Shown here in pieces: positions 22,851 to 27,232 of a stretch of DNA of 64,000 bases. Positions within the stretch are counted from its first letter, which is position 1. Every line of letters begins with the position of its first letter. The translations under genes and the position numbers were made by a program. Source of the DNA: Corynebacterium silvaticum (lineage in GTDB: Bacteria > Actinomycetota > Actinomycetes > Mycobacteriales > Mycobacteriaceae). The notes below the pieces were generated by a model. It did not search any database and was not told the origin of the DNA. It saw only the letters and a program-made list of their open reading frames with translations. Location: contig NZ_SDQO02000005.1 in the NCBI RefSeq assembly GCF_004382825.2, forward strand, positions 1-64,000. The letters are read 5' to 3'.

Positions 22851-22922
22851 TGGCCTATGGTGTAATTGGCAACACTACGGTTTCTGGTACCGTCATTCTA
22901 GGTTCGAGTCCTGGTAGGCCAG
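22851..22922 (+). tRNA. tRNA-Gln (CTG)
   Basis: 72-nt cloverleaf: acceptor TGGCCTA/TAGGCCA, anticodon stem ACGGT/ACCGT with loop TTCTGGT giving anticodon CTG, T-arm with GGTTCGAGTCC. CCA is not encoded. Confidence 0.93.
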
Positions 22923-22955
22923 CAGCGAGAAATCGCTTCTGATAGAAAGTTCTAT

Positions 22956-23028
22956 GCCCCGTTCGTCTAGCGGCCTAGGACGCCGGCCTCTCACGCCGGT
23001 AACACGGGTTCAAATCCCGTACGGGGTA
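22956..23028 (+). tRNA. tRNA-Glu (CTC), copy 1
   Basis: 73-nt cloverleaf beginning GCCCCGTTCGTCTAG, anticodon stem/loop with CTCTCAC giving CTC, T-arm GGGTTCAAATCCC. Identical to the copy at 25402 through the discriminator base. The 3' end reads ACAA, so CCA is not encoded in this copy. Confidence 0.95.
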
Positions 23029-23035
23029 CAAAATG

Positions 23036-23282: not shown

Positions 23283-24692
23283 ATGGGTGGTGGGATAAAG
23301 CGTTATCTTGGCCTGGTGGCAGTTGCATGCGCTGGCAGCACTATTGTGGGAATACCGGTAGCGGGGGCGCAACCGGCGCAGTGTCCGAGGATAGAGATCG
23401 CGGTAACTGGGGGATCGGGAAACTCAAGCCCCTTGGATGACCCCCAAGACATCCTCAGCTTCGGCGGAACAAACTTTGCCAAGCACGTTGCCCGTCTGCA
23501 TTCGGATGTGCGCGTGTGGCAAACCCCGTATTACTCCTCAATCGGTGTTGTCGGTGGCGGAAGCAAAACCGGATTCGATCGCTTTTTAACTTACGGCGAC
23601 TCCTACCGGGGTGGCGTGGACACATTGCATAAGCACGTTGAAGAAGTCGCTGCCGCTTGCCCAGGAACGTCCTTTATCTTGGCCGGATACTCCCAGGGCG
23701 CGGATATCGCCGGGGCGATCACTGAGCGCATTTCTCGCGGTGAGATTAAAGGCGTGACTGCGGAAAAACTTCTCGCCTCATACCTCCTAGCGGATCCCGG
23801 TCGGTCGCGCATAACAGCTAATAGCGCTACCATGACCACCGGTTACTCCGGCAGAGTGACGGAAAATGGGGCGATCATGGTTGACACGAACTATGGTCTC
23901 CCAGACCCTGGCTCGGTGGGTATCGCTAGCCCACGCCCTGCTGGTGCCTTTAGTAACCTGCCCGGAAAAGTTCGTTCCGTGTGCAGCTCGGGCGACCCGG
24001 TGTGCAGCGTGATCCCCAATGGTGCACTGGCTGCGGTAGCTCAATGGGCTATCAAAGAGGGCAAAGAGATTAACTACGACCGTCCTAGCGTTTCTTTGGG
24101 TTCGATGTTCAAAGACGGTAGCTTTGTCATCTCCGTGGGGCCTTACCTTGGCCAGATCCTCTCTGGATTCTATTACGGGGAGCCACAACCAGTCCGCGAC
24201 GGCTTCTACGCGGCATCGCGCAACACGTGGCTTAACGACGCCCAGCGCAATGCCTTGGAAATCGTAGCCGAGGAAACCTCAAGTGTGATGCGTTACCTGG
24301 ATAGCACGAAGATCTTCGGCATTACCCAAGAACATCTGACTGGCAACATGGCCATGGATCGCCTCATCAATATTGTCAGCTCGCTGCACAGCAAAATTGG
24401 GCTTGCAGAAACCTCCCTGGCGCTTGGTGTGACTTCCAGGCACGTCTCTTATACCGGCGATAGCAGCACACCTACCACCATCCAGGGGCAGCGGGTAGAT
24501 GACTGGATCCAAACCGATATGTCCAAAGTGGTAGCGGCGCATCTGGGCGGGCCAGCGTTGCCGGAAATTCCTCAGACTGCGCGCATGGGGCTTCTCCAGA
24601 AAGTGGGAGCGCCAATCTGGTGGCTGACCAAAAAGATTTTTGGAGAGCGCAGCAAGATGACGCGTGACATATGGGAGTATTTTGACCTCTGA
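23283..24692 (+). CDS. Secreted cutinase-like serine esterase
   Basis: 469 residues. Signal peptide ends near GIPVAGAQPAQC. Cutinase-family alpha/beta hydrolase: AVTGGSGNSSP near the N-terminus, nucleophile elbow ILAGYSQGADIAG (Ser about residue 140), and CSSGDPVCSV, the conserved region carrying the catalytic Asp between cysteines. The C-terminal about 200 residues are a corynebacterial extension without a recognised motif. RBS GGGAGG (23265-23270) precedes ATG 23283. Related mycobacterial and corynebacterial enzymes act on lipids. The gene sits between two identical tRNA-Glu copies, which makes later insertion or duplication plausible. Confidence 0.85.
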   Translation: MGGGIKRYLGLVAVACAGSTIVGIPVAGAQPAQCPRIEIAVTGGSGNSSPLDDPQDILSFGGTNFAKHVARLHSDVRVWQTPYYSSIGVVGGGSKTGFDRFLTYGDSYRGGVDTLHKHVEEVAAACPGTSFILAGYSQGADIAGAITERISRGEIKGVTAEKLLASYLLADPGRSRITANSATMTTGYSGRVTENGAIMVDTNYGLPDPGSVGIASPRPAGAFSNLPGKVRSVCSSGDPVCSVIPNGALAAVAQWAIKEGKEINYDRPSVSLGSMFKDGSFVISVGPYLGQILSGFYYGEPQPVRDGFYAASRNTWLNDAQRNALEIVAEETSSVMRYLDSTKIFGITQEHLTGNMAMDRLINIVSSLHSKIGLAETSLALGVTSRHVSYTGDSSTPTTIQGQRVDDWIQTDMSKVVAAHLGGPALPEIPQTARMGLLQKVGAPIWWLTKKIFGERSKMTRDIWEYFDL

Positions 24693-24738: not shown

Positions 24739-24792
24739 AATCCTATTGAGCTGGGCATTTGAGGAAATTAAGCAAAAGTGCTTCACAATGAG

Positions 24793-25274
24793 GTGTGACC
24801 CGCCTAGACTGTGAGGTGTCAGACCGATTAGGTCACAACTTTAAGGGTGAAGATCCTAGAGGAAATAAAAAGACGCTGCTAGGAATCTAAAGCCTCCTTA
24901 GGGACTGGCCTTTATGGTCGACAGCTCACGCTAGTCGAGCCAGCAAAGGAGGTTGCGTGGCAGCAAGTGAATCAGCAGAACATTCCGGTTACCGCGTCGG
25001 CAGCTCTTTCAACGCCGGCAGTGCCCTAATCCGGACTTCTAAGCGCCAGGGATGCGTGAAGCCGGAGCTACTAAGAACTACTGGAGCGGTAACGTCCCTT
25101 AGTTTCAAGAGGTATTAGCCAATCCCGACATACTTCCCCTTCAGGGTTACGCGGACGAAGCGGCGAGATGCCGGCTTACGAAACTTTCGCATTACATGTC
25201 GATGAGATTCGAGCGTTCCTCAAGATTGATAAGGAAGAGCCCCTAGGGCTGAAACGATTAATCTACTCAAGAAG
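24793..25274 (+). ncRNA. Candidate large structured RNA (type not identified)
   Basis: No convincing protein is encoded, but many nested complementary segments are present. 24852-24859 pairs with 24879-24887. 24893-24899 (CCTCCTT) pairs with 24946-24952 and encloses 24905-24909/24939-24943 and 24918-24922/24934-24938. 24988-24995 (GTTACCGC) pairs perfectly with 25086-25093 and encloses 24996-25001/25014-25019 and 25033-25039/25058-25063. The stretch starts GTGTGACC, which resembles a group II intron 5' end, but I find no domain V or reverse transcriptase. A remnant of an RNA-bearing mobile element is the other option. Boundaries are approximate; plus strand is assumed. Confidence 0.45.
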
Positions 25275-25276
25275 GG

Positions 25277-25306
25277 TCCCCACCGTCTTTCCAGGCGGTG
25301 GGGATT
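25277..25306 (+). terminator. Hairpin ending the structured region
   Basis: TCCCCACCG (25277-25285) and CGGTGGGGA (25296-25304) pair perfectly around TCTTTCCAGG. The tail is weakly T-rich. It looks like a terminator, but the same shape (CCCC...GGGG following a remnant ending) is also seen at right ends of IS200/IS605-type elements. Confidence 0.5.
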
Positions 25307-25401: not shown

Positions 25402-25474
25402 GCCCCGTTCGTCTAGCGGCCTAGGACGCCGGCCTCTCACGCCGGTAACACGGGTTCAAATCCCGTACGGGGTA
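25402..25474 (+). tRNA. tRNA-Glu (CTC), copy 2
   Basis: Identical over 73 nt to the copy at 22956. Here CCA follows the discriminator base, so the 3' end is genome-encoded in this copy only. Confidence 0.95.
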
Positions 25475-25481
25475 CCACTTA

Positions 25482-25514: not shown

Positions 25515-25907
25515 TTGTGCTGGGGCGCAATGGAGTACACGTGCCTGCATAACCATAGACATTGGCGGTATTTTCTGTGGTTTTAGTGCTCTTTGTCTAT
25601 GGTTATGCAGGCTATGGGATCTGAGAACCGCAAAGCCAGTAGCAGGGAAAACTGATTATTGGTAAAAGCGGTCGGGGAATTATTGAACGAGATATTCAGA
25701 TAATTTTCGAGAAAAAGTCTCCATGAGGTTTTTCTAGCCAGCGAGTATTCCACTAGTTTTTCGTGGACGCATGGATACCTTGGGCATCGATGATGAATGG
25801 TAGCCCTTGCATCTTTGAGCATAAGAAAGGCTAGTTGGTCACTACTGAGAAACACGACGCGATGGAAAACCGCATCAACTAGTGATTCGAGTTCACCAAC
25901 AAATGTT
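25515..25907. repeat. Intergenic region with 19-bp inverted repeat (25543-25612)
   Basis: Arms 25543-25561 (GCCTGCATAACCATAGACA) and 25594-25612 are perfectly complementary over 19 bases with a 32-base T-rich spacer. The rest (25613-25907) is AT-rich; an 90-codon minus-strand frame there has no recognisable motif or credible RBS and I do not call it a gene. Confidence 0.7.
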
Positions 25908-27232
25908 TTAAGTCACCCGGACATCATATCGGTTGATATGGGAACGGGAGTAGAGTACCCAGATTCCAGAAGATAATAAGCCGAGGACAGCCCAGGTCAT
26001 GACTGTAGTAGGGCTAGCTGCGAACTGTGACGTCAGCAGCCACGCTGTTGCTGCACCGAGAAGCTCAACTCCCCAGCTGATCGCTCGGACTGCGGCAGTT
26101 GTTCGCCCTATCTGTTCAGATTTAACGGCGACCTGCTTGATGGACTCGCACAGAGACATATTCACCACAACGCAGAATGACCACACAGCCGATGCGATGA
26201 CCAAAAGCGTAATAGAACCGAAGTTTTGCACACCGATTCTTGCCACTACAGCCGCTGCTAACCCGGGGATCCCGAAGGTTGCTATCAATAAGGTATAGGT
26301 CGACAAACGCGAGCTGATTCGAGACACAAATAACCCTGCGATGACGCCACCGATACCGCCACCCGTGAAGACGATCCCCAAGATGAAAGGAGACAACCGT
26401 AGCGTTGAAACTAGGTGGAACAGGTAAAGAGCGAAGAACATACTGGTGAAAAGTTGAAGTGAGTGGCACTCACGGTGGTAGCGCGGACCACCGGAGTTTT
26501 CCATACCAAGGTGATTCCCGAGGTTACCGCTTCTCGGAATGTAGAGTAGGTGCTGGCATTGGTTCGCTGATTTTTGGGTTGTTTAGGTCTGTGGGTGCTT
26601 GTCGGGGTGGTGAATGCGATGCAAAGCGCTGACGCGAGATAAGAGAACGCGTTAACGGTGATCGCGAGCGGTGCTGTCACTACTGAGACGAGCGCGCCGG
26701 CAAGGCTAGGGCCACCGACTTCACCGGTGGATTGTGTCGCCTGCATGTACCCATTGGCCCGCACTAGAAGCGGTGTGGGAACCAAGTCGCGGATATAGCC
26801 AGACATGGTGCTATCGAAAAGGACTCCCAGTTCAGCAGTGAAGAACACGACTAGCAGGACTAATTCCAGTGACTCGTATCCTACGAGGAACGCGGCTGGT
26901 ATCACCATGATCACCGCAGCCCTAGTTATATTGAGGCTTATTAGCAGGCGACGGCGGTTTGGCAAATCGGCAACGCTCCCGCCGAGGAAACCGAACAAAA
27001 TAACCGCGAGTGACTCGGCCATGCTGATGAGCGTCACTTGGGAGGCACTGGCTTCCAGTGCAGCAATCACCATGATTGGTACAGCAATGGCGGTGATTTG
27101 CATTCCTGTTGAAGACAAAGTCTCGCCCGCCCATAGTCGGGCGAAGCCAGACGGAAGTTTGTTCTTGCCCGCCGAATGTTGTGATCTGGCTTCAGTAGTC
27201 ATTAAGTAGAGATCACCACGTTTACTAGTCAT
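25908..27232 (-). pseudogene. Frameshifted MFS transporter (exporter type)
   Basis: The N-terminal two thirds (start 27232 or ATG 27202; RLWAGETLSSTGMQITAIAVP, then GSVADLPNRRRLL, the MFS motif A region) run to a stop at 26411. The C-terminal part (LFTSMFFALYLFHLV, six further helices, ending RYDVRVT) is in another frame and ends at 25908. The overlap places a single-base loss at about 26449-26453 in a short T run (minus strand). Whole, it is a 12-helix EntS/macrolide-efflux-like protein of about 430 residues. A sequencing indel cannot be excluded. Confidence 0.85.

What the first reader, a model, noticed from the sequence alone, without database searches (positions are those of the whole stretch)
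24793..25306. Dense nested RNA stems between the two tRNA-Glu copies
At least seven complementary segments nest in multi-stem architecture (e.g. GTTACCGC/GCGGTAAC enclosing two smaller stems), with no protein. The start GTGTGACC resembles group II introns, and the end hairpin resembles IS200/IS605 right ends, but neither class is confirmed. May be an undescribed structured RNA or a mobile RNA element remnant.
Basis: partly seen in the sequence, partly recalled or inferred. Interest (0 to 1): 0.65.

Follow-up and report, generated by a model that had tools for sequence, protein, structure and literature searches.

The report
Corynebacterial RNA polymerase-binding RNA (CoRP)
The folded stretch between the tRNA genes is this bacterium's copy of CoRP, a recently described RNA that grips RNA polymerase in Corynebacterium, and comparison of many species suggests that it also carries a conserved ribosome-binding site whose role is untested.

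Summary
In detail: 24793-25306 contains a real, conserved, nested RNA structure. It is not undescribed and not mobile. It is the local homologue of CoRP RNA (516 nt, C. glutamicum; PMC11077062, 2024), an abundant RNA that binds RNA polymerase core and sigma-A/B holoenzyme. Rfam 15 finds no family here. New: all 85 loci carry a Shine-Dalgarno-like motif (GGAG in 81) with ATG/GTG/TTG at nearly fixed spacing; 0 of 85 have an in-frame stop in the first 13 codons (48 and 54 of 85 in the other frames), yet the peptide is unconstrained (pN/pS about 1). Only 1 of 6 more distant relatives has this start at the matching place. The ORF overlaps the 5' arm of the closing stem, so ribosomes might open or close the domain; unproven. 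Polymerase binding in this species is inferred from homology.

The parts
22851..22923 (+). tRNA-Gln (CTG), first gene of the CoRP synteny block
   Evidence: ARAGORN
22956..23029 (+). tRNA-Glu (CTC), upstream copy
   Evidence: ARAGORN; Rfam RF00005
24782..24810 (+). probable sigma-A promoter TTCACA-17 nt-TAGACT
   Evidence: 9 of 12 consensus matches; 1 found, 0.5 expected by chance in the region; same hexamers in L002, TTCACA and TACACT in L003 (alignment)
24817..25306 (+). CoRP RNA homologue, inferred transcript (start inferred from the promoter, end from the terminator-like hairpin)
   Evidence: homology to the published C. glutamicum locus, CM hits at 24945-25069 and 25151-25190; ends are inference
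24893..24899 (+). CCTCCTT, complementary to the Shine-Dalgarno; possible sequestering arm, seen in the window and its two closest relatives (L002, L003)
   Evidence: MFE fold; alignments
24945..24951 (+). Shine-Dalgarno-like AAAGGAG
   Evidence: across 85 loci: G4 85, G5 85, A6 82, G7 84
24957..25118 (+). small ORF, GTG start, 53 codons plus TAG; no Pfam match; overlaps the 5' arm of the closing stem
   Evidence: Pfam
24988..24995 (+).
25017..25025 (+). GGC-AGT-GCC mini-hairpin
25030..25066 (+). conserved core hairpin TCCGG-CTTC-GCGC ... GCGT-GAAG-CCGGA
   Evidence: covariation; model R3 hit 25016-25069
25086..25093 (+). 3' arm of the closing stem (GCGGTAAC)
25151..25190 (+). second covarying hairpin GCGGACG-AAGC-GGC...GCC-GCTT-ACGAAACTTTCGC
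   Evidence: model R2 hit E 2.2e-9 (the window was among R2's training rows); covariation
25275..25306 (+). intrinsic-terminator-like hairpin, 14 pairs, weak T tract
   Evidence: 2 terminator-like sites found, 0.8 expected by chance
25402..25477 (+). tRNA-Glu (CTC), downstream copy
   Evidence: ARAGORN

Best explanation
This is the CoRP RNA gene of a Corynebacterium: a stand-alone transcription unit (own promoter, about 490-nt RNA, terminator) between tRNA genes whose product folds into at least two conserved hairpin domains and binds RNA polymerase core and, to a lesser degree, sigma-A/B holoenzyme, presumably to tune free polymerase levels across growth phases as 6S and Ms1 RNAs do. Shown here: homology to the experimentally characterised C. 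glutamicum RNA, conserved place, conserved structure by covariation, a conserved translation-start motif inside it. Taken from the paper: polymerase binding and stationary-phase cleavage, in C. glutamicum only. Inferred: that the same binding happens in the window's species, the transcript ends, and what the RNA does to transcription.
For: [quoted passage not shown] its transcript was also seen in public C. diphtheriae and C. pseudotuberculosis data (PMC11077062 sections 27-28). Genome G212 (single contig of 3,309,401 bases) has model R1 at 1366339-1366463 and model R2 at 1366559-1366606, inside those coordinates. The window matches that locus in two colinear blocks, best 65% over 127 bp, E 2e-8 in a pairwise search. 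R1 gives the window 109.8 bits, E 2.9e-25 (the window was among R1's training rows, so this is not independent; one search is). tRNA-Glu downstream on the same strand in 75 of 85 loci, upstream in 47 of 85 within the fetched flanks. Covariation: core hairpin 8 of 12 pairs with double changes, 52 cells versus 17.3 in shuffles, 0 of 500; second hairpin 65 cells versus 19.4, 0 of 500; closing stem 41 of 41 better than the swap mean. The 6S model finds nothing in the own genome.
Against: No expression or binding data for this species were seen. Identity of G212 as C. glutamicum rests on coordinates; that 3,309,401 is the ATCC 13032 length is recalled. Outside the two blocks the window and C. glutamicum are poorly alignable. 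In the window a cutinase-like gene sits between the upstream tRNA-Glu and CoRP. R1, R2 and R3 found CoRP in only about 91 of 242 genus genomes, so either many species lack it or the models miss it. Weaker covariation measures: number of pairs with double changes reached by 8 of 500 and 40 of 500 shuffles, pair types by 56 of 500; the inner core stem pairs in only 71% of cells.
Confidence: 0.93

Rival explanations
1. Besides (or instead of) an RNAP-binding RNA it is a small mRNA: the ORF at 24957-25118 encodes a functional micropeptide.
For: SD-like motif plus ATG/GTG/TTG in 85 of 85 loci; an in-frame stop in the first 13 codons in 0 of 85, against 48 and 54 of 85 in the other frames; a 54-codon ORF in G209 (L160) has the length of a hypothetical protein that the CoRP paper says overlaps CoRP in C. 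diphtheriae (that G209 is C. diphtheriae is recalled from its length).
Against: pN/pS 0.98 over 24 disjoint same-length pairs, higher than in the two other frames (0.71, 0.82); lengths 13 to 54 codons; a 1-nt insertion shifts the frame in G043 (L003); indels in the first 14 codons are multiples of three in only 5 of 19 cases against 1 of 24 elsewhere in the core; no Pfam match for the window's peptide.
Confidence: 0.05
2. Group II intron, HEARO/omega RNA or IS200/IS605 remnant.
For: Superficial: GTGTGACC, terminal hairpin.
Against: No Rfam match up to E 10; single copy; one match in each of 85 genomes, 78 of 85 with a tRNA-Glu on the same strand in the fetched flanks; no match in the plasmid collection.
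Confidence: 0.01
3. Leader or processing region of the downstream tRNA-Glu (read-through transcript controlling tRNA-Glu supply).
For: A downstream tRNA-Glu on the same strand in 75 of 85 loci.
Against: Terminator-like hairpin before the tRNA in the window; the C. glutamicum RNA is a discrete 516-nt species by RACE and co-purifies with RNAP (PMC11077062); distance from the core to the tRNA varies from 191 to 1110 nt.
Confidence: 0.02

Closest known systems
CoRP RNA (Corynebacterium glutamicum; PMC11077062, abstract and sections 27, 28, 33 read)
   Same: Colinear sequence blocks, hairpins, length class, place between tRNA-Gln/tRNA-Glu and tRNA-Glu, terminal hairpin.
   Different: In the window a cutinase-like gene lies between upstream tRNA-Glu and the RNA; the ORF is 53 codons with GTG start (30 codons, ATG in C. 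glutamicum); the second hairpin is 8 nt shorter; the SD can pair with an upstream CCTCCTT.
Ms1 RNA (mycobacteria, Streptomyces; PMC9130861 passages seen, PMC4191392 seen in the search listing only)
   Same: Abundant actinobacterial RNA that binds RNAP core (for CoRP this is shown in C. glutamicum only).
   Different: About 300 nt (PMC11077062 section 28), beside a HAD hydrolase gene; not found in Corynebacterium by synteny (PMC9130861); model R1 found nothing outside the genus in the order sample.
6S RNA (RF00013)
   Same: Works by binding RNA polymerase (holoenzyme).
   Different: About 200 nt; RF00013 finds nothing in the own genome though it rings in 5 of 14 control genomes.

Membership tests
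CoRP RNA | Sequence homology to the C. glutamicum CoRP locus | tested here: met
   blastn 65% over 127 bp, E 2e-8, plus a second short colinear block (E 0.39 on its own)
[quoted passage not shown]
   with an inserted cutinase-like gene
CoRP RNA | Conserved secondary structure shared with relatives | tested here: met
CoRP RNA | Restricted to Corynebacterium | tested here: met
   85 of 242 genus genomes; in the order sample of 397 genomes, 85 genera, only the own genome (strict filters, R1 only)
CoRP RNA | About 500-nt transcript that binds RNAP core and sigma-A/B holoenzyme | not testable with these tools
   shown for C. glutamicum in PMC11077062 only
CoRP RNA | Cleavage in stationary phase (after G318 in C. 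glutamicum) | not testable with these tools
   PMC11077062 section 27; compared by eye only
Group II intron / HEARO / omega RNA | Covariance model match | tested here: not met
   (presence of these models in Rfam is recalled)
6S RNA (RF00013) | Covariance model match | tested here: not met
Ms1 RNA | Sequence or structural homology to mycobacterial Ms1 | tested here: inconclusive
   R1 finds nothing in non-Corynebacterium genomes of the order sample; no direct comparison with an Ms1 sequence was made
IS200/IS605 right end | Mobile copies or a tnpA/tnpB association | tested here: not met
   single copy, conserved synteny; no transposase match among the 7 nearby proteins scanned against Pfam

The most novel reading that the evidence does not exclude
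CoRP is a translation-gated polymerase trap: a conserved ribosome-binding site and short open frame, whose peptide does not matter, run through the 5' arm of the stem that closes the conserved domain, so ribosomes translating the leader keep the domain open, and a drop in translation initiation lets it fold and capture RNA polymerase, coupling transcription capacity to translation.
Probability: 0.17. Interest if true: 0.8.

Novelty: new member of a known kind. Interest (0 to 1): 0.45.

Why it matters
CoRP is described by its authors as a new class of abundant polymerase-binding RNA beside 6S and Ms1, with binding experiments in one species. This work adds covariation-supported structural elements, three covariance models and a genus-wide distribution; Rfam 15 has no family that matches it. 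The conserved translation start without a conserved peptide is unexpected in an RNA treated as non-coding; if real, it makes a direct link between ribosome activity and polymerase sequestration testable by point mutations in a laboratory strain.

Tried and rejected
Group II intron, HEARO/omega RNA and riboswitch readings: no Rfam match at gathering or at E up to 10. Mobile element: single copy, no match in the plasmid collection. Ms1/6S: not found. RNAalifold on the first MAFFT alignment found only 3 pairs, I think because the 5' arm was misaligned; a structure that I named did much better.

Peptide-coding reading: tested and mostly rejected as to the product, kept as to the start and open frame. 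Indel test: one search was over-gapped (24 of 137 versus 60 of 322 multiples of three, no excess) and is set aside; the stricter gave 5 of 19 versus 1 of 24, not decisive.

Ascertainment of the Shine-Dalgarno: R1 contains it, so 85 of 85 is partly selected. R3, built without it (67 of 68 distinct hairpin rows), found the same 85 genomes, but its training rows came from R1 hits. The 7 genomes found by R2 alone are a freer test: G009 is a truncated 23-base match without tRNA nearby, taken as chance; of the other 6, only G098 has an SD and ATG that also align to R1. The loose scan also lists SD-like/start pairs in L172 to L175 at other places or spacings, which I did not count. So the start is not universal in relatives with the second hairpin.

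Rows dropped: L117 from A3 (my cut truncated it; 36 of 37 distinct kept); L157 (the split G036 locus). Of 40 fetched tRNA-Glu intervals, the 21 without a core hit were searched with R1 unfiltered and gave three weak matches, two loci of which (G098, G206) proved to hold the second hairpin. A genome-contig scan with a degenerate motif gave only C. pacaense.

Full report
What is there. Between tRNA-Gln/tRNA-Glu (22851-23029) and a second tRNA-Glu (25402-25477) the window holds a cutinase-like gene (23283-24692; PF01083, E 4.6e-12) and then a stretch without a long ORF. That stretch has a promoter-like site at 24782-24810 and a terminator-like hairpin at 25275-25306 (neither count exceeds chance by much on its own), and folds more stably than 100 of 100 shuffles (z -2.87). 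Rfam 15 finds only the tRNAs in the window and nothing in the stretch at E up to 10.

Relatives. The DNA occurs once in the own genome. A DNA search of 201 genus genomes gave matches in 8, the own genome included: two others nearly full-length (97% and 92%) and five with short conserved patches. Each of the 8 genomes has at least one tRNA-Glu in the fetched stretch. This pointed to a conserved RNA gene rather than a mobile element.

Identification. A literature search led to PMC11077062 (abstract and sections 27, 28 and 33 read): in C. glutamicum an unannotated intergenic RNA, NC_003450.3:1366239-1366719, dominates the RNA co-purified with RNA polymerase and sigma-A/B; [quoted passage not shown] Genome G212 has tRNA-Glu pattern matches at 1365731, 1365979 and 1367601 and a single contig of 3,309,401 bases. 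The window matches its intergenic region at E 2e-8 over 127 bp, with a second short colinear block. The window element is therefore a CoRP homologue. 'CoRP RNA' with 'Corynebacterium' occurs in only that paper of the held library. Rfam 15 at gathering scores finds only tRNAs in 12 CoRP-bearing loci including C. glutamicum.

Distribution. A covariance model of the core (R1, 126 positions, built from 29 loci) matches 85 of 242 genus genomes, once each. In a sample of 397 genomes from 85 genera of the order only the own genome matched; that sample includes some other Corynebacterium genomes. A model of the second hairpin (R2) matches 48 of 242: 41 shared with R1 and 7 new, of which one (G009) looks like chance and six lie within about 0.5 kb of a tRNA-Glu on the same strand. 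A model without the Shine-Dalgarno (R3) finds the same 85 genomes as R1. So CoRP is detectable in about 91 of 242; the rest lack it or are too diverged. Downstream tRNA-Glu on the same strand: 75 of 85; upstream: 47; both: 44; neither within the fetched flanks: 7. Flanks were under 1 kb on each side for 55 of the 85 loci, so these are lower bounds.

Structure. Core hairpin on the 85-row alignment (80 distinct): 87.5% of cells paired, 8 of 12 pairs with changes on both sides (reached by 8 of 500 shuffles), 52 such cells against 17.3 (0 of 500), pair types 19 against 16.4 (56 of 500); sliding the partner by 1-3 columns drops pairing to 31.7-41.4%; the inner stem pairs in only 71.2% of cells. That alignment was fitted to the structure; the MAFFT alignment of 29 rows gives the same picture (18 cells against 6.9, 0 of 500). 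Second hairpin, MAFFT alignment of 36 rows: 92.9% paired, 65 double-change cells against 19.4 (0 of 500), 7 of 13 pairs with double changes (reached by 40 of 500), covariation score 0.439 against 0.200 (0 of 500); one of its pairs occurs as CG, UA, AU, GC and GU. A profile search found it in 40 of 85 core loci. Closing stem: in 41 of 41 cluster representatives the locus's own arms pair better than the mean of arms swapped between clusters, and 29 of 41 are within the best 10% of swaps; for one (L080) 45% of swaps do as well. The search window there is wide (up to about 45 and 56 nt), so exact pairs are not fixed for each species, and cluster representatives are not fully independent.

A conserved translation start. 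In all 85 R1 loci a Shine-Dalgarno-like motif (GGAG in 81 of 85) is followed by ATG (66), GTG (18) or TTG (1); the spacing is exactly the same in 82 and shifted by one base in 3. The GG is invariant and the start-codon TG nearly so, while the spacer varies, with 8 to 12 inferred changes at each of four spacer positions and 6 at the start-codon first letter, which is never C. An in-frame stop within the first 13 codons occurs in 0 of 85 loci (0 of 41 cluster representatives), against 48 and 54 of 85 (23 and 25 of 41) in the other two frames. Part of this contrast comes from the conserved letters GTAAGTGA, which put stops in the other frames. The peptide is not conserved: pN/pS 0.98 over 24 disjoint pairs of equal ORF length and 70-99.5% identity, length 13-54 codons, a frameshift between close relatives. 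Indels do not clearly respect the frame (5 of 19 against 1 of 24). Of six relatives found only by R2, one has the start at the matching place. The stop codon ends 1-13 nt before the GGC hairpin in 41 of 85 and lies farther downstream in the other 44. The CoRP paper itself says that partial translation in C. diphtheriae cannot be excluded; I saw no test of it in the search listings or the passages.

Mechanism. Best supported: an RNA that binds RNA polymerase, as its C. glutamicum homologue does. In this species that step is inferred. The bold extension is that ribosomes on the short ORF, which runs through the 5' arm of the closing stem (24988-24995 lies inside 24957-25118), hold the domain open. 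In the window and its two closest relatives the SD may also be masked by CCTCCTT at 24893-24899. This is consistent with the anatomy but untested, and the absence of the start in five of six distant relatives counts against it as a universal mechanism.

Verdict. The added value is the covariation-backed structure, the distribution and the conserved translation start.

Noticed in passing
window 25908-26504 (-) and 26411-27232 (-): Two overlapping ORFs match the C-terminal (weakly, 21.4 bits, below the curated cut-off) and N-terminal parts of one MFS transporter profile (PF07690), so the gene looks frameshifted.
   Followed up: no
window 23283-24692 (+): Cutinase-like gene between upstream tRNA-Glu and CoRP. 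In its two closest relatives (L097, L098) too no upstream tRNA-Glu lies within 1.5 kb, whereas 25 of the 30 loci with 1.5 kb flanks (L080-L109) have one there.
   Followed up: partly
window 25543-25560 / 25595-25612: Perfect 18-bp inverted repeat with a 34-nt loop just after the tRNA-Glu (read by eye); two partial, weaker copies elsewhere in the own genome, perhaps a small repeated element.
   Followed up: partly
G036:C1 205143-205223 and 202427-202483 (L157 holds the first): CoRP appears split by about 2.7 kb between the small ORF and the core hairpin.
   Followed up: no
L080, L081, L082, L084, L085: C. glutamicum (L081) and four relatives have a tandem duplication of the tRNA-Gln/tRNA-Glu pair before CoRP.
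   Followed up: no
L171-L175: Relatives with the second hairpin but no significant core match or matching Shine-Dalgarno: CoRP may have been reduced or rebuilt in these lineages.
   Followed up: partly
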